This document shows positions 12,713 through 63,560 of a stretch of DNA of 64,000 nt, one piece after another. The first letter of the stretch is position 1. Each line of letters opens with the position of its first letter. The stretch is from positions 169,501 through 233,500 of the forward strand of contig NC_016024.1 in assembly GCF_000226295.1 (NCBI RefSeq), written 5' to 3'. This DNA comes from Chloracidobacterium thermophilum B. GTDB lineage: Bacteria; Acidobacteriota; Blastocatellia; Chloracidobacteriales; Chloracidobacteriaceae. The notes under the pieces are model-generated. The model did no database searches. It saw nothing but the letters and a program-made list of their open reading frames with translations, and was not told the origin of the DNA. The position numbers and the translations under genes are program-made.

Positions 12713-13909
12713 TCAGGCGGGAGTGGCGTCGAGCCGGGTAGGGCGGTACAGCCCCAGCAGGGCGCGGGTCAGGTGATAGAAGTTCTTGCTCATGATGCGG
12801 ATGCCGTCGAGCATCGGCATCCGCACCAGCGTTTTGTACATGTAGGATTGAAACGTCAAATCCTGCACGCCACGGTCGCGGCAGATGGCCACGAATGCTT
12901 CCCGCCGGGCGTCGTTTTTGTAGTACAGGTTCTGCATCAGTTCGAGGAAGCGGAACGTGGCCCCGTACTTCTTCAGAAAAGCCTTCTGGTAGGCGCGATA
13001 GAGTTTTTCGCTGCGCAGATCGTGACGACATTCCAGCATGGCCTCGGCGGCCATCTCGCCGCTTTTCATGGCGTAGAAAATCCCCTCGCCTGAACTGGAG
13101 GCCACGAGTCCGGCGGCGTCGCCAACCAGCGCGACGCGGTTCGTCACCCAGCGGTCATAGGGGCGGAGCGGGATGGGCGCGCCTTCGCGCAGCGTGGGGC
13201 GTTCACTGATGCCCAAGTGCTGCTTGAAGGCTTCAAGGTGTCCCTTGAGATTGGCGCTGCGAATGGCCGTGCCGGTGCCGACGGCGACGTGGTCGGCTTT
13301 GGGAAAGACCCAGCCGTAAAAGTCGGGCGAGTAGCGGCCGTCATAGTAAATGGCACAGCGTTCGTTGAGGCGGCGCGCTGTTTCGGTATTGAGGGCAAAC
13401 CGCTCCTGGATGGCCGCCGCGACGAGACCGCCTTGGTGAAGATTGAAGGTACGTGCCACGAAGGAATTGGCCCCGTCCGCGCCGATGATGGCATCGGCCA
13501 CCAGCGTCTGGCGGTTTCCCTGGGGCGTGGTGAAGGTGACGGTCGCGCCGCGTTCGGTGGCATCCACGCCTTCAACCCGTCCCTCGACGACAAGAGCGCC
13601 GAGTTGGCTTGCCCGCTGGCGCAGAAACGCATCGAACGCCTCGCGGCAGACCATGCCGACGTAACCCTGGTGAATGTCCATGGTGACGGCCCGCCCCGAC
13701 GGGGCATAAACCGCCACGGAGGAGACCCGCCGCTGGATGAGGTGCTCAGGAATGTCGAAGTCCCGCACCAGAACCGGTGGAATGGCACCACCACAGGGCT
13801 TGATCCGGGAAAAACTTTTTTCGATGAGTACCGTCTCAACGCCGGCCCGCGCCAACGTGGCCGCCGCTGTGGACCCGCCCGGCCCCCCTCCACATACAAT
13901 CACCCGCAT
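12713..13909 (-). CDS. bchP: Geranylgeranyl reductase (BchP/ChlP type)
   Basis: A flavoprotein of 398 residues that reduces the geranylgeranyl side chain of (bacterio)chlorophyll, or geranylgeranyl-PP, to phytyl using NADPH. The FAD-binding GxGxxG is at the N-terminus (MRVIVCGGGPGGSTAA), followed by KPCGGAIPP, typical of the family. The middle carries IGADGANSFVAR, YGWVFPK, and GDAAGLVASSSGEGIFYAM. Archaeal-type lipid reductases share these motifs, but the nearby BCD-family transporter supports the chlorophyll assignment. The next minus-strand gene upstream is that transporter, 480 bases away across the structured repeats. Confidence 0.85.
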   Translation of the reverse strand: MRVIVCGGGPGGSTAAATLARAGVETVLIEKSFSRIKPCGGAIPPVLVRDFDIPEHLIQRRVSSVAVYAPSGRAVTMDIHQGYVGMVCREAFDAFLRQRASQLGALVVEGRVEGVDATERGATVTFTTPQGNRQTLVADAIIGADGANSFVARTFNLHQGGLVAAAIQERFALNTETARRLNERCAIYYDGRYSPDFYGWVFPKADHVAVGTGTAIRSANLKGHLEAFKQHLGISERPTLREGAPIPLRPYDRWVTNRVALVGDAAGLVASSSGEGIFYAMKSGEMAAEAMLECRHDLRSEKLYRAYQKAFLKKYGATFRFLELMQNLYYKNDARREAFVAICRDRGVQDLTFQSYMYKTLVRMPMLDGIRIMSKNFYHLTRALLGLYRPTRLDATPA

Positions 13910-14064
13910 AAAACACGCTCCCGGTAATGGATTTCAACGGTGGGAAGCCGGGCGGTTCTGTGCCTGGCCACTTCTGCATCACGGTTTTATGCCGCGCTCC
14001 CGGCAAAACCGGGCGAGCTGTCCGGGGTAACGTGTGTAACGCTACAGAGAAAAAGTTTCAAAAG

Positions 14065-14124
14065 GCGCAGCGTACCTTTGCTCGTTCCCACTCGACTCGG
14101 ACACTCAAGCTCCATCCTTCCGGC
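14065..14124 (+). repeat. Degenerate copy of the structured repeat unit
   Basis: Shares GCGT, CTTGCTC/CTTTGCTC, CCCACTC, GGACAC and GCTCC blocks in the same order as the two well-kept 75-bp copies that follow, but lacks the left arm of the long stem and has no terminator-like hairpin after it. Read as a decayed first member of a tandem set. Confidence 0.45.
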
Positions 14125-14236
14125 AATCAATTTGCAGGGAAGGAAGCGTCTGCTTGCTGCGTCCCCACTCAACAAGGACACGCTCCTCCCTGCAAACCCG
14201 GCCGTACTTCCCCACCAACGGAAGTACGGCTTTATT
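14125..14236 (+). ncRNA. Candidate small RNA, unit 1
   Basis: The 75-bp repeat (14125-14199) can fold into a long stem. TTTGCAGGGA-A-GGA-A-GCGT pairs with ACGC-TCC-TCCCTGCAAA, giving 17 base pairs with two single-A bulges, closed by an inner loop containing CCCCACTCAAC. A perfect 11-bp hairpin with a T-rich tail follows immediately, as expected for a transcript with its own intrinsic terminator on the + strand. There is no open reading frame of note. It resembles nothing I can name, and the 5' end and promoter are not identified. Confidence 0.5.
14201..14236 (+). terminator. Intrinsic terminator, unit 1
   Basis: GCCGTACTTCC (14201-14211) pairs perfectly with GGAAGTACGGC (14220-14230) across an 8-nt loop, followed by TTTATT. 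The T tract is on the + strand, so it cannot serve the flanking minus-strand genes. Confidence 0.75.
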
Positions 14237-14243
14237 CCTCCAG

Positions 14244-14367
14244 AATCAATTTGCAGGGAAGGAAACGTCTGCTTGCTGCGTCCCCACTCAACAAGGACAC
14301 GCTCCTCCCTGCAAACCCATGACCGTATCGGGCACCTTTGGCCGCCACACGATACGGGCTGTCTTTT
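14244..14367 (+). ncRNA. Candidate small RNA, unit 2
   Basis: A second copy of the 75-bp repeat (14244-14318), 119 bases from the first and differing at a single base: G to A in the inner GCGT of the stem. The loop sequence is unchanged. It is followed by a different hairpin with a T tract. Two copies with the same body but unrelated terminators suggest that the body is selected as an RNA rather than copied with its flanks by simple tandem slippage. Confidence 0.5.
14323..14367 (+). terminator. Intrinsic terminator, unit 2
   Basis: CCGTATCG (14323-14330) pairs with CGATACGG (14350-14357), with an inner loop that includes GGC/GCC pairing potential, followed by GCTGTCTTTT. The T tract again lies on the + strand. 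It ends about 25 bases before the stop of the minus-strand BCD transporter gene. Confidence 0.65.
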
Positions 14368-14391
14368 CAAAGCGCGCTCATCAGGGTTTCA

Positions 14392-15783
14392 TCATGAGTT
14401 CGCGCTGACGACATCGGCCAGATGCTCGATGCCGTGGCGGTCATCCCGCCGTTCTTCCAGTTTCTGGGGCGTCGTCCGCCCCATAGACAGCAGCAACCAC
14501 ACGGTGGCCATCAGAGCCAGGGCTTCAAGGGCAAACACACCCTGGTAGGCCAGCCCAATCTGTCCCGTCACCGCTTCCAGTCCGGCGCGTCCGACACCGG
14601 CGGTCAACCCGGCCGTGCCCTGCGCCAGTGCCTGAGCAATGCCCCAGACGCCCAGGTAGGTGGCCGCCTGACCGGGGCGCGTCATGTCCATCATCATCGA
14701 AAGGGCCCCGACAGCGAAAATCCCGCTGCCCATTCCCAAAGTGAACACCCCAACCCGCAGGACTCCGCTTCCCAAGCCTGCGGCTGCAATAACAAGTCCC
14801 AATCCCAACGTACTCAAAAATGCTCCCAGCAATGCAATCTGTTTGCGCGAGAGGCGTCGGGCCAGGATGAAACCGGCAAACAGCATTGAGATGAGTGTGG
14901 CTCCGCCCCAGGTCGGCTGAAGGCGGGTTGTATCTGCCAGCGACATCTGCAACACCTGCGCGCCGTAAGGTTCGAGGAGCACATCCTGGGCGTTGACGCC
15001 GAAGATACCCAGCGCGACGACGGCGAAGAAAATCTTTGAATCCCGGTCAGCCGTCATGACGGCAATCGTTTCGCGCAGCGTCGGGGGCTTTTCATCTTCG
15101 GCCGCCAGGTTCCGGTGGCGCGGCTCCATGCCGATGACGGCCGCCAGCATCAGCAGGGCGGAAATCCCTACCACGGTGTAGAACAACTGCTGAAGCACCT
15201 GGTCGAGTGCAGCCGTGTCGAGGGCCGTTATGTCGGTGGACAGCTTCGACAGGTTCAAGTCAAAGTACTTCGCAATGACGATGCCCGTCGCCACGATGCC
15301 AAAGGCCACCATCATGAACCAGGCCACGGAAATCGTCCGGGCGCGGTGTGGCCCCGACAAATCACTCATCAACGCCAGGTAGGGCACCGAAGCGGCGTTG
15401 AGTCCCAGCCCCCAGAGCGCAAATGCCATCCCACAGGCCAGACTGCCCCAGAACGGTTGGGTCCGCATCCACTGCGCCGCATGCAGGATGAGCAACAGTG
15501 AGCCGAGGGCGACCAGCATGCCGCCCACGATGTAGGGCGTACGGCGGTAGCCCCAGAGCGGCCGCGTGTCCGAGGCATAGCCAGCCAGCGTGCGCATCGG
15601 GCAGACGACATAGTGCGCACAGACGAATATCCCCACGAGCGCTGCGTTGATTTGCCACTCACTGATCATCACCCGGTTCAGGATGCCGAAGACGAGCAGC
15701 GCATTCATGCCAATCGCCACATTGAGCAGTCCCAATCGGATGGTCGCCGGTAATGACAAAGGGAGTACGGATGGGGATGACAT
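14392..15783 (-). CDS. BCD-family (PucC/LhaA-type) major facilitator
   Basis: A 463-residue membrane protein with about 12 helices. The N-terminal IRLGLLNVAIGMNALLVFGILNRVMISEW, the PMRTLAGYASDTRPLWGYRRTPYIVGGML loop, and the later FILARRLSRK and MMMDMTRPGQAATYLGVWGIAQALAQG are typical of the PucC/LhaA/Bch2 family. Members act in assembly of light-harvesting complexes or bacteriochlorophyll handling in phototrophs. It shares strand with bchP downstream, separated by the tandem RNA-like units. Together they support a chlorophototrophic host. The exact cargo is unknown. Confidence 0.88.
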   Translation of the reverse strand: MSSPSVLPLSLPATIRLGLLNVAIGMNALLVFGILNRVMISEWQINAALVGIFVCAHYVVCPMRTLAGYASDTRPLWGYRRTPYIVGGMLVALGSLLLILHAAQWMRTQPFWGSLACGMAFALWGLGLNAASVPYLALMSDLSGPHRARTISVAWFMMVAFGIVATGIVIAKYFDLNLSKLSTDITALDTAALDQVLQQLFYTVVGISALLMLAAVIGMEPRHRNLAAEDEKPPTLRETIAVMTADRDSKIFFAVVALGIFGVNAQDVLLEPYGAQVLQMSLADTTRLQPTWGGATLISMLFAGFILARRLSRKQIALLGAFLSTLGLGLVIAAAGLGSGVLRVGVFTLGMGSGIFAVGALSMMMDMTRPGQAATYLGVWGIAQALAQGTAGLTAGVGRAGLEAVTGQIGLAYQGVFALEALALMATVWLLLSMGRTTPQKLEERRDDRHGIEHLADVVSANS

Positions 15784-56596: not shown

Positions 56597-57717
56597 GCCT
56601 GGGAGCGCGGGCATCCTTGCCCGCATGAATCCAACGGGCGGATTCAACCGTCGCTACGCGACGGGGGGGTTGGGGGCGTATGTGATCCGTGGGTTGAAAC
56701 CCACGGCTAAATTCATCCGTCGCTACGCGACGAGTCTGGGAGGGCGGGCATCCTGCCCGCGTGATGAGTTGGAGGCGTGGGCATCCTTGCCCGCATGAAT
56801 CGAACGGGTGGATTCAACCGTCGCTACGCGACGGGGGGGTTGGGGGCGTATGTGATCCGTGGGTTGAAACCCACGGCTAAATTCATCCGTCGCTACGCGA
56901 CGAGTCTGGGAGGGCGGGCATCCTGCCCGCGTGATGAGTTGGGGGCGTGGGCATCCTTGCCCGCATGAATCGAACGGGTGGATTCAACCGTCGCTACGCG
57001 ACGGGGGGTGTGTTGGGGGCGTACGTGATCCGTGGGTTGAAACCCACGGCTAAATTCATCCGTCGCTACGCGACGAGTCTGGGAGGGCGGGTATCCTGCC
57101 CGCGTGATGAGTTGGGGGCGTGGGCATCCTTGCCCGCATGAATCGAACAGGTGGATTCAACCGTCGCTACGCGACGGGGGGTGTGTTGGGGGCGTATGTG
57201 ATCCGTGGGTTGAAACCCACGGCTAAATTCATCCGTCGCTACGCGACGAGCCTGGGAGCGCGGGCATCCTGCCCGCGTGATGAGTTGGGGGCGTGGGCAT
57301 CCTTGCCCGCATGAATCGAACGGGTGGATTCAACCGTCGCTACGCGACGGGGGGTGGGGGCGTACGTGATCCGTGGGTTGAAACCCACGGCTAAATTCAA
57401 CCGTCGCTACGCGACGAGTCTGGGAGGGCGGGCATCCTGCCCGCGTGATGAGTTGGAGGCGTGGGCATCCTGCCCGCATGATGAGTTGGGAGCGCGGGCA
57501 TCCTGCCCGCATGAATCCAACGGGTGGATTCAACCGTCGCTACGCGACGGGGGGTGGGTTGGGGGCGTATGTGATCCGTGGGTTGAAACCCACGGCTAAA
57601 TTCAACCGTCGCTACGCGACGAGCCTGGGAGGGCGGGCATCCTGCCCGCAGGATGAAATGTAAAGCGCGGGCATCCTGCCCGCAGATGAGTTGAGAGCGC
57701 GGGCATCCTGCCCGCAT
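56597..57717. repeat. Tandem array of three palindromic modules (170-173 bp unit)
   Basis: About six units of 170-173 bases, the later ones shortened. Each is made of module A (GCGGGCATCCTTGCCCGC or GCGGGCATCCTGCCCGC), module B (CCGTCGCTACGCGACGG), module C (CCGTGGGTTGAAACCCACGG) and a second B. All modules are self-complementary hairpins. Several frames stay open across it and would give repeated peptides such as NRRYATGG, but the unit length is not a multiple of three and no ribosome sites fit, so I treat it as non-coding. Confidence 0.9.
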
Positions 57718-62492: not shown

Positions 62493-63560
62493 GCCGGGAG
62501 CACGGGCGTCCCGCCCGCATTGGCCCGTATGGGAATGGGGGCATCACCGCGATCCGTGGGTTGAAAACCACGGCATTCAACCGTCGCTGACGCGACGGGC
62601 CTGGGAGCGCGGGCGTCCCGCCCGCATTGGCCCGCATGGGAATGGGGGCATCACCGCGATCCGTGGGTTGAAACCCACGCCTCAATTCAACCGTCGCTGA
62701 CGCGACGGGCCTGGGAGCGCGGGCGTCCCGCCCGCATTGGCCCGCATGGGAATGGGGGCATCACCGCGATCCGTGGGTTGAAACCCACGGCTAAAATCAG
62801 GCGTCACTACGCGACGATGGAGATTCCAATAAATTCAACCGTCGCTACGCGACGCGGGCCGATGCGGCACGTTTTCCCTGCGCGAGGGGGGCAACCTGGC
62901 GGGGTGGTGGCTGCCCGTACGCAACGATGAAGATTTGGGGATGCCCACGGAAATGCGGGGTGGGAATACCTACGGGCCGCGAAGTGGGAACGGGCCGCGA
63001 AGTGGGAAACCATGCCGCGTCAGCGGCAACTGAATTTAGCCGTGGGTTTCAACCCACGGATTCGGGGGGGCAACCCACGGATCACGTCGCCCCCAATTGT
63101 TTCCCGTCGCGTAGCGACGGATGAATGCCACCGGCAGGGGGCGTCCGATACGTCGCGCAATCCGTGCGGGCGGGACGCCCGCGCGCCCAGGCGCGTCGCG
63201 TTAGCGACGATTGAATTTAGCCCGGCGTTTCAACGCCGGGAAAACGGTGTCACATCGCCCCGCGTCGTGTAGCGACGCCTGAAATCCACCGTGGGTTCAA
63301 ACCCGCGACGGATTTCAACCCCCGAATCGTGTGATGCCCCATGCCCACGCGGGCGGGACGCCCGCGCTCCCAGGAGCCGTGGGTTGTGAAACCCATCATG
63401 GGTTGAAAAAACACGCCTCAATTCAACCGTCGCTGACGCGACGGGGGTGTGGGGGCACCGCGTCCGTGGGTTGAAACCCACGGCTAAAATCAGGCGTCGC
63501 TACGCGACGAGCCTGGGAGCGCGGGCGTCCCGCCCGCACAGGAACCACAGCTCTGAGAGT
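62493..63560. repeat. Second palindromic-module array, partly degenerate
   Basis: From 62493 to about 62820 three units of about 110 bases repeat the series A (GCGGGCGTCCCGCCCGC), a spacer GGGAATGGGGGCATCACCGCG, C (CCGTGGGTTGAAACCCACGG) and B (CCGTCGCTGACGCGACGG). From 62820 to 63560 the same modules appear in both orientations with mutated or exchanged arms, such as CCGGCGTTTCAACGCCGGG. The stem variants differ from those of the 56.6-57.7 kb array but follow the same plan. Confidence 0.85.

What the first reader, a model, noticed from the sequence alone, without database searches (positions are those of the whole stretch)
14065..14367. Tandem structured units with their own + strand terminators: candidate new small RNA family
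Two 75-bp copies differing at one base, plus a decayed third, each able to form a 17-bp bulged stem with a CCCCACTCAAC loop. Each kept copy is followed by a different intrinsic-terminator hairpin with a + strand T tract. Flanking genes bchP and the BCD transporter are both on the minus strand, so the terminators cannot serve them. The CCTCC-containing arm could pair with ribosome-binding sites. Target and function are unknown; pairing with photosynthesis mRNAs is speculation.
Basis: partly seen in the sequence, partly recalled or inferred. Interest (0 to 1): 0.72.

Follow-up and report, generated by a model that had tools for sequence, protein, structure and literature searches.

The report
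Conserved tandem RNA hairpins beside bchP
Between two photosynthesis genes of a phototrophic acidobacterium lie repeated RNA hairpins that have stayed letter-for-letter the same across several species while neighbouring DNA changed, which marks them as a probable functional RNA whose strand and job still have to be measured.

Summary
The repeat is real and under strong selection. Two 75-nt copies differ at one base. Homologues lie between the same genes in 8 genomes, the same 8 of 162 in the class that carry the FMO photosynthesis protein. Of 16 copies, 9 (six species) are identical over 66 nt, while bchP fourfold sites of four of these species match the window's at 37-54%. The 'decayed third' is a distinct first unit found in all 8. 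Three stem pairs show double changes. No Rfam family matches. The strand is unsettled: T-rich tails favour +, but the second hairpin is a poor terminator, and four of four separate one-sided stem changes are A.C on + and G.U on -. I favour a tandem + strand small-RNA operon acting through its invariant C-rich apex, perhaps with Hfq (10 of 10 genomes; CsrA 0 of 10). Main rival: a minus-strand leader or 3' UTR between the PucC-type transporter and bchP. No conserved target was found.

The parts
14131..14196 (+). type-A unit, copy 1 (66-nt core of the 75-nt repeat; strand as favoured, not proven)
   Evidence: repeat; fold; identical 66-mer in 9 of 16 copies; coordinates
14250..14315 (+). type-A unit, copy 2; one base different (14265, A for G), shared by the second copies of G000, G004 and G005
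   Evidence: 8 genomes; 7 genomes; model scores
14200..14238 (+). hairpin T1 with T-rich tail, intrinsic-terminator-like on +
   Evidence: d=21.7; nT 4.24
14323..14368 (+). hairpin T2 with weak T-containing tail; in the output of neither terminator scan
   Evidence: nT 2.18
14029..14053 (.). conserved block AACGTGTGTAACGCYACAGAGAAAA, one site per genome (up to 3 mismatches) in 7 of 7 genus genomes; holds a CRP/FNR-spaced dyad-like TGTGT-N6-ACAGA (14033-14048)
   Evidence: regulator type is recalled knowledge and inference
13999..14013 (.). conserved CGGYAA element (CGGYAAAA in 7 of 8), 30-31 nt from the dyad in 8 of 8 genomes; promoter-like constant spacing
12713..13909 (-). bchP, geranylgeranyl reductase (neighbour)
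14392..15783 (-). PucC-family (BCD-type) transporter (neighbour)

Best explanation
A lineage-specific small-RNA operon. A promoter in the conserved block beside bchP (14029-14053) drives a + strand transcript holding a first unit, then one to three nearly invariant 66-nt hairpin units, each followed by a hairpin that acts as a leaky or full terminator. Nested 3' ends or processing would release hairpin RNAs of about 100 nt or more. The units act in trans through the invariant C-rich apex (CCCCRCUC..GACAC), by pairing with mRNAs, perhaps with Hfq. Shown: conservation, tandem build, stem compensation, T-rich + tails. Inferred: transcription, strand (about 0.55 for +, shared with the sponge rival), Hfq, pairing, any link to photosynthesis.
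For: Same locus in 8 genomes. 9 of 16 copies, from 6 species, identical over 66 nt, while bchP fourfold sites of G006, G005, G003 and G002 match G000 at 46, 48, 37 and 54%. Three pairs with double changes, 6 of 500 shuffles as high on + and 4 of 500 on -. T-rich tails after 17 hairpins: T 93 against A 36 of 204; mean nT 2.85 against 1.95 (sd 0.13) at random + places of the same regions, 0 of 5000 draws as high; minus-side tails 1.88 (orthologous hairpins are not independent). Linkers between U1 and the first type-A unit are not T-rich (T 43, A 50 over 8 genomes). First terminator scores above 0 in G000, G004, G005, G006 and G002. Conserved block just upstream, one site per genome in 7 of 7. 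Hfq in 10 of 10 genomes searched.
Against: No transcript data. No sigma-70-like promoter in 13900-14500. Copy 2 lies behind the strong T1 with no promoter of its own seen, and the last hairpin has a poor tail in most genomes (nT 1.8-2.8 in 7 of 8, 3.7 in G002). On + the same 21 pairs hold in 93.3% of cells with 0 G-U; on - 98.1% with 10 G-U cells. All 6 distinct units fold 4.6 to 9.5 kcal/mol better on -, though shuffles of the minus sequence also fold better. Inter-unit hairpins hold 7 G-U pairs on + and 15 on -. Consensus folds are better on - for U1 (-12.4 against -8.0) and for U1 and type A together (-18.5 against -8.7). The minus model scores the held-out first unit higher in 5 of 7 genomes compared. 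No conserved target of the loop: 20 exact 10-mer complements outside the arrays, fewer than the 56 of the reversed control pattern, each shared by at most two genomes.
Confidence: 0.45

Rival explanations
1. The folded RNA is on the minus strand: tandem hairpins in the transcript that runs from the transporter towards bchP, acting as a 3' UTR / intercistronic stabiliser or as an attenuating leader of bchP. The last unit (U1) is followed on that strand by a U tract (UUUUCUC).
For: One-sided stem changes are G-U on minus and A-C on plus; 98.1 against 93.3% of cells paired. Minus folds are more stable, and U1 folds over most of its length on minus in G001, G002, G003 and G008. Consensus folds are better on minus for U1 and for the joint alignment. 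U1 scores higher on minus in 5 of 7. Terminator-like structure on minus at U1 plus U tract in G002 (d=21.4) and G001 (11.4), borderline in G003 (-0.4); on minus G002 T1 (14.0) and G001 T1 (6.9) also score above 0. All units would then be transcribed equally.
Against: It leaves the T-rich + tails after the hairpins unexplained. Of the 10 G-U cells 6 come from the shifted bulge of the G008 copies and 4 are separate one-sided changes by my hand count, three of them in G008 (a fair coin gives 4 of 4 at p=0.06). In the G001 U1 one wobble speaks for + (by hand, folds). U1 and U tract give no terminator above d=-25 in the window's own genome. Unit z-scores are alike on both strands for the common form (-5.41, -5.39).
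Confidence: 0.33
2. A protein-sponge or scaffold RNA: the units are repeated binding sites for an RNA-binding protein, so that sequence as well as structure is frozen.
For: Paired and unpaired positions are alike invariant in 9 of 16 copies; the number of type-A units varies from 1 to 3.
Against: CsrA, the known partner of such sponges, is absent in 10 of 10 genomes searched. GGA is not kept in every unit (G003 U1 has GAA). No Hfq-binding motif was tested.
Confidence: 0.15
3. DNA-level repeat or remnant without an RNA role (REP/MITE-like, recombination site, or homogenised tandem duplication).
For: Tandem, copy number varies; an inverted repeat in DNA also folds on both strands.
Against: One locus only in the window's genome at the sensitivity tried; the model's clear hits in the other 7 genomes are all at this locus. 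Fixed synteny in 8 genomes, compensated changes, identity across species at large silent divergence. The copy-2 variant shared by position in G000, G004 and G005 speaks against plain homogenisation.
Confidence: 0.07

Closest known systems
CcsR1-4 small RNAs of Rhodobacter sphaeroides (cuckoo RNA family)
   Same: Several homologous small RNAs in a row in a phototroph; there one co-transcript cut by RNase E, and Hfq-dependent (passages read in PMC10253847, and PMC7866481).
   Different: CcsR genes are co-transcribed with the small protein gene ccaF1 and a terminator is drawn at the 3' end of the operon; here hairpins with T tails lie between units, and a DUF1127 gene was not searched for. Sequences not compared directly; no Rfam match.
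LhrC1-5 of Listeria monocytogenes
   Same: Five almost identical RNAs of 111-114 nt with C-rich (UCCC) motifs in loops, also in the terminator loop; bind Hfq and block a Shine-Dalgarno sequence (passages read in PMC4132741). Here a UCCCC motif is in the unit apex and in the T1 loop of G000, G004, G006 and G002.
   Different: Different phylum and sequence; here no shared promoter before each copy was seen (by eye), and no target is known.
Yfr1 / Yfr2 / Yfr10 of cyanobacteria
   Same: Small RNAs of phototrophs with a highly conserved short pairing motif; yfr2 in several copies (passages read in PMC6778093).
   Different: yfr2 copies are at unconserved loci; here one syntenic array.
Acido-Lenti-1 and Acido-1 RNA motifs (Weinberg et al. 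2010)
   Same: Candidate RNAs listed for Acidobacteria (passages of PMC2864571); Acido-Lenti-1 matches occur elsewhere in this window.
   Different: The array matches neither at gathering score nor at E up to 10.

Membership tests
multicopy tandem small-RNA genes (the CcsR/LhrC kind, as a kind, not a homologous family) | near-identical structured copies in a row | tested here: met
   (two genomes, G001 and G003, have a single type-A unit beside U1)
multicopy tandem small-RNA genes (the CcsR/LhrC kind, as a kind, not a homologous family) | transcribed as stable small RNA | not testable with these tools
   no expression data held; paper searches listed no such study of this genus
multicopy tandem small-RNA genes (the CcsR/LhrC kind, as a kind, not a homologous family) | intrinsic terminators on the RNA strand | tested here: inconclusive
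   first hairpin good in 5 genomes, last ones mostly weak
multicopy tandem small-RNA genes (the CcsR/LhrC kind, as a kind, not a homologous family) | pairs with mRNAs | tested here: inconclusive
   no conserved exact 10-mer site; bchP ribosome-binding site ranks 3 of 44 window genes in G000; duplex energies in the 8 genomes run from -14.7 to -21.6 without a common pairing
CsrB/RsmZ-type CsrA sponges | CsrA in the genome | tested here: not met
   0 of 10 genomes
6S RNA | match to RF00013 | tested here: not met
   no match at this locus; 6S-like matches lie elsewhere in 7 of 8 genomes, 1 of them over the cut-off
any Rfam 15 family | match at or above gathering score | tested here: not met
   window; three matches far below their gathering scores, best for the array region BcKCsr2 11 of 40 bits and mir-1179 14.3 of 80; 6 homologous loci, none to E 0.5
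cis-regulatory leader of bchP | lies in the 5' part of the bchP transcript on the minus strand | not testable with these tools
   transcription start unknown; wobble pattern is compatible

The most novel reading that the evidence does not exclude
On the minus strand the array is a multi-hairpin attenuator between the PucC-type transporter and bchP: U1 can fold either as a unit hairpin or, through its GUGGGG apex, as a terminator stem before the conserved UUUUCUC tract (as computed for G002), so that binding of a ligand or protein to the tandem units sets how much bchP is made. That would be a cis-acting RNA switch on bacteriochlorophyll tail reduction in the phototrophic Acidobacteriota.
Probability: 0.12. 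Interest if true: 0.75.

Novelty: new member of a known kind. Interest (0 to 1): 0.5.

Why it matters
Little is known of gene regulation for phototrophy in Chloracidobacterium (recalled). An RNA element kept almost letter for letter beside bchP in each of the 8 FMO-bearing genomes among 162 of the class gives a concrete, testable regulator candidate, and the strand conflict found here tells which blot to run first.

Tried and rejected
Rejected: a dispersed repeat or mobile element (one locus); CsrA sponge; 6S RNA; known Rfam family; phage origin (no match; plasmids not searched); a small coding frame (by eye: the TTG at the start of the unit is missing in two of three G008 copies). G007 and G009 carry a bchP-like gene (51-59%), but within the 6.5 kb fetched it lies beside what by eye are ATP synthase genes, with no transporter hit and no unit (best 10.2 bits). 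The weak model hits outside (G092 and G132; G323) are at chance level for 162 and 396 genomes searched and were not followed.

Led nowhere: complement of the loop (TTGAGTGGGG) in 8 genomes, 38 sites, 18 in the arrays and 20 outside, against 56 for the reversed control; each outside site lies in an open stretch of 113 codons or more on one strand, and only three pairs of genomes share a site. Duplex of the 3' part of the unit with bchP ribosome-binding sites: -20.4 in G000/G004 and, with another pairing, -21.6 in G003, weaker in the other five; that arm is buried in the stem. Sigma-70 promoter scan: 0.

Limits of my counts: alignments A1/A5 used 10 of 16 copies (6 distinct cores); A4 used 7 of 8 first units (G004 left out as near-identical to G000). 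The terminator score d and tail score nT follow the d'Aubenton-Carafa form as recalled, written into my scripts; one search printed d above -25 only. Shuffle z covers 5 of 6 distinct units (the copy-2 variant was left out) and runs from -2.0 to -5.4 on +. The separate-event count for one-sided changes was made by hand.

Full report
The window lies in a two-contig genome of 3.70 Mb. Its closest named relatives are contigs titled Chloracidobacterium (two), uncultured Blastocatellia (one) and 'Actinomycetota ... WN_Acidobacteria' (one). I therefore read it as a Chloracidobacterium genome (inference).

The observation. Two copies of a 75-nt repeat are present, 14125-14199 and 14244-14318, differing at one base. 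With short flanks both fold better than all 200 dinucleotide shuffles. Copy 1 has a 17-pair bulged outer stem. Copy 2 has 16 of 17 pairs, since its difference gives an A.C mismatch on +. A terminator-like hairpin with a T tail follows copy 1. The hairpin after copy 2 has a poor tail (nT 2.18) and is in the output of neither scan. The 'decayed third' (about 14060-14106) shares the core CCCACTC..GACAC.

Homologues. A DNA search of 58 relatives gave strong matches in 8 genomes: the 7 held genomes of the genus (G000-G006, the window's own included) and G008 of another genus of the family. The best match in each of the other genomes was at E 0.02 or worse, or there was none. In all 8 the element lies between bchP and the transporter. 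There are 2, 2, 2, 2, 3, 1, 1 and 3 type-A units in G000, G004, G006, G005, G002, G003, G001 and G008, 16 in all with 6 distinct 66-67-nt cores. Nine copies, from 6 genomes each of its own species (G000, G004, G006, G005, G002, G003), are identical. For comparison, bchP fourfold sites of G006, G005, G003 and G002 match G000 at 46, 48, 37 and 54% (G004, a near relative, 96%). Neutral sequence at that distance would not stay identical, so the unit, paired and unpaired, is constrained. The first unit and an upstream block (AACGTGTGTAACGCYACAGAGAAAA) are also conserved. The block occurs once in each of the 7 genus genomes, always here, and in diverged form in G008. So the third copy is a distinct first unit rather than a relic, although in this genome it matches the unit model weakly (6.4 bits).

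Range. A covariance model of the unit (R1) gave clear matches in 8 of 162 genomes of the class (E 4e-18 or better) and two chance-level ones. FMO, the bacteriochlorophyll a protein, is in exactly the same 8 of 162. The mirrored model R2 in 396 genomes drawn from the phylum, which apparently held only three of the eight, found those three plus one weak match. Co-occurrence with phototrophy rests on one clade and one locus, so it is weak evidence for function. G007 and G009 have a bchP-like gene elsewhere without the element.

Structure and compensation. On alignment A1 (10 of 16 copies) with 21 pairs, 3 pairs show changes on both sides (6 of 500 shuffles as high) and 93.3% of cells pair. The clearest cases are G-C to A-U in G001 and A-U to G-C in G008. 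In G008 the bulged A moves so that most of the stem stays paired (17, 14 and 14 of 17 pairs in its three copies). The hairpins between units differ in sequence from genome to genome but keep a stem in most of them; the one of G003 is weak.

Which strand. For +: the 12 nt after 17 inter-unit hairpins hold T 93 and A 36 of 204. The mean tail score is 2.85 against 1.95 (sd 0.13) at random + places of the same regions, 0 of 5000 draws as high, and 1.88 on the minus side. A tail score of 3.6, which the first hairpin reaches in G000, G004, G005, G006 and G002, occurs at 58 of 3844 + positions and 93 of 3844 minus positions. Linkers between U1 and the first type-A unit are not T-rich (T 43, A 50). 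Orthologous hairpins are not independent, so the 5000 draws overstate the case. The first terminator scores above 0 in these 5 genomes, and the last one of G002 too. For minus: with mirrored alignment and identical pairs, 98.1% of cells pair, and the 10 cells gained are all G-U; 6 of them come from the shifted bulge in G008, and the other 4 I count by hand as separate one-sided changes, all A.C on + and G.U on minus, which a fair coin gives at p=0.06. All six distinct units fold 4.6 to 9.5 kcal/mol better on minus, and inter-unit hairpins hold 15 G-U pairs on minus against 7 on +; shuffle z-scores are alike for the common form and the G001 form and better on minus for the three G008 forms. Consensus folds favour minus for U1 (-12.4 against -8.0) and for U1 with type A (-18.5 against -8.7), with like conservation index for type A alone (1.50, 1.49). 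The held-out first unit scores 27.6/27.2, 24.4/26.6, 22.6/24.2, 20.9/22.2, 17.0/20.0, 11.6/16.5 and 6.4/4.7 bits on +/minus in G001, G002, G003, G008, G005, G006 and G000. On minus a U tract conserved in the genus follows U1, with a terminator-like stem in G002 (21.4) and G001 (11.4), and two inter-unit hairpins also score above 0 on minus (G002 14.0, G001 6.9). I weigh this as about 0.55 for +, 0.33 for minus, the rest both or neither.

Promoter-like elements. The block holds TGTGT-N6-ACAGA, spaced like sites of CRP/FNR-type regulators (recalled). A CGGYAA element lies 30-31 nt from it in 8 of 8 genomes. This looks like a promoter region shared by bchP and the array or belonging to one of them; no sigma-70 consensus is present.

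Mechanism. My preferred reading is a small-RNA operon on +, with terminators of varied strength giving nested products, acting in trans by the invariant C-rich apex. Hfq is present in 10 of 10 genomes of the family searched and CsrA in 0 of 10. The loop complement TTGAGTGGGG gave 38 sites in 8 genomes, 18 of them in the arrays; the reversed control gave 56. The other 20 lie in open stretches of 113 codons or more, and only three pairs of genomes share one, so no conserved target is shown. The 3' part of the unit could pair with the bchP ribosome-binding site in G000 and G004 (-20.4 kcal/mol) and otherwise in G003 (-21.6), without a common pairing over the 8 genomes.

Comparison with what is known. 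It works most like CcsR1-4 of Rhodobacter (co-transcribed, RNase E-processed, Hfq-dependent; passages) or LhrC1-5 of Listeria (near-identical copies with C-rich loop motifs; passages), without a test of sequence membership beyond Rfam. It matches no Rfam family at gathering score; three matches in the window stretch searched at E up to 10 are far below their cut-offs, and six homologous loci gave none to E 0.5. 6S-like matches lie elsewhere in 7 of 8 genomes. Searches of the paper library (listings only, 8 of 8, 12 of 34 and 3 of 3 papers shown) showed no small-RNA study of Chloracidobacterium by title or abstract start.

Verdict: real, conserved and not in Rfam; strand and function open. I file it as a new member of the known kind 'tandem multicopy small RNA', with the minus-strand leader as the live alternative.

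Noticed in passing
56687-57621 and 63194-63509: Rfam Acido-Lenti-1 (RF01687) matches 8 times in the window. Six lie in a 173-205-bp tandem array of GC-rich palindromes at 56600-57717, two near 63.2-63.5 kb outside the arrays listed; here the family looks like a palindromic repeat rather than a single small-RNA gene.
   Followed up: partly
14032-14048 with 13999-14013: A dyad-like GTGTGT-N6-ACAGA and a CGGYAA element at constant 30-31 nt spacing in 8 of 8 genomes between bchP and the array: a possible regulated promoter of bchP, of the array, or of both.
   Followed up: partly
L129 4016-5218 and L130 3831-5015: In two genomes of the same family without FMO a bchP-like reductase (51-59% identical) sits beside what by eye are ATP synthase genes, perhaps a relative with another substrate.
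   Followed up: no
G000:C1:2379373-2379550 (own genome, outside the window): A 6S RNA match just under the cut-off (46.1 of 46.4 bits) recurs in 7 of 8 genomes searched; probably a divergent 6S RNA.
   Followed up: no
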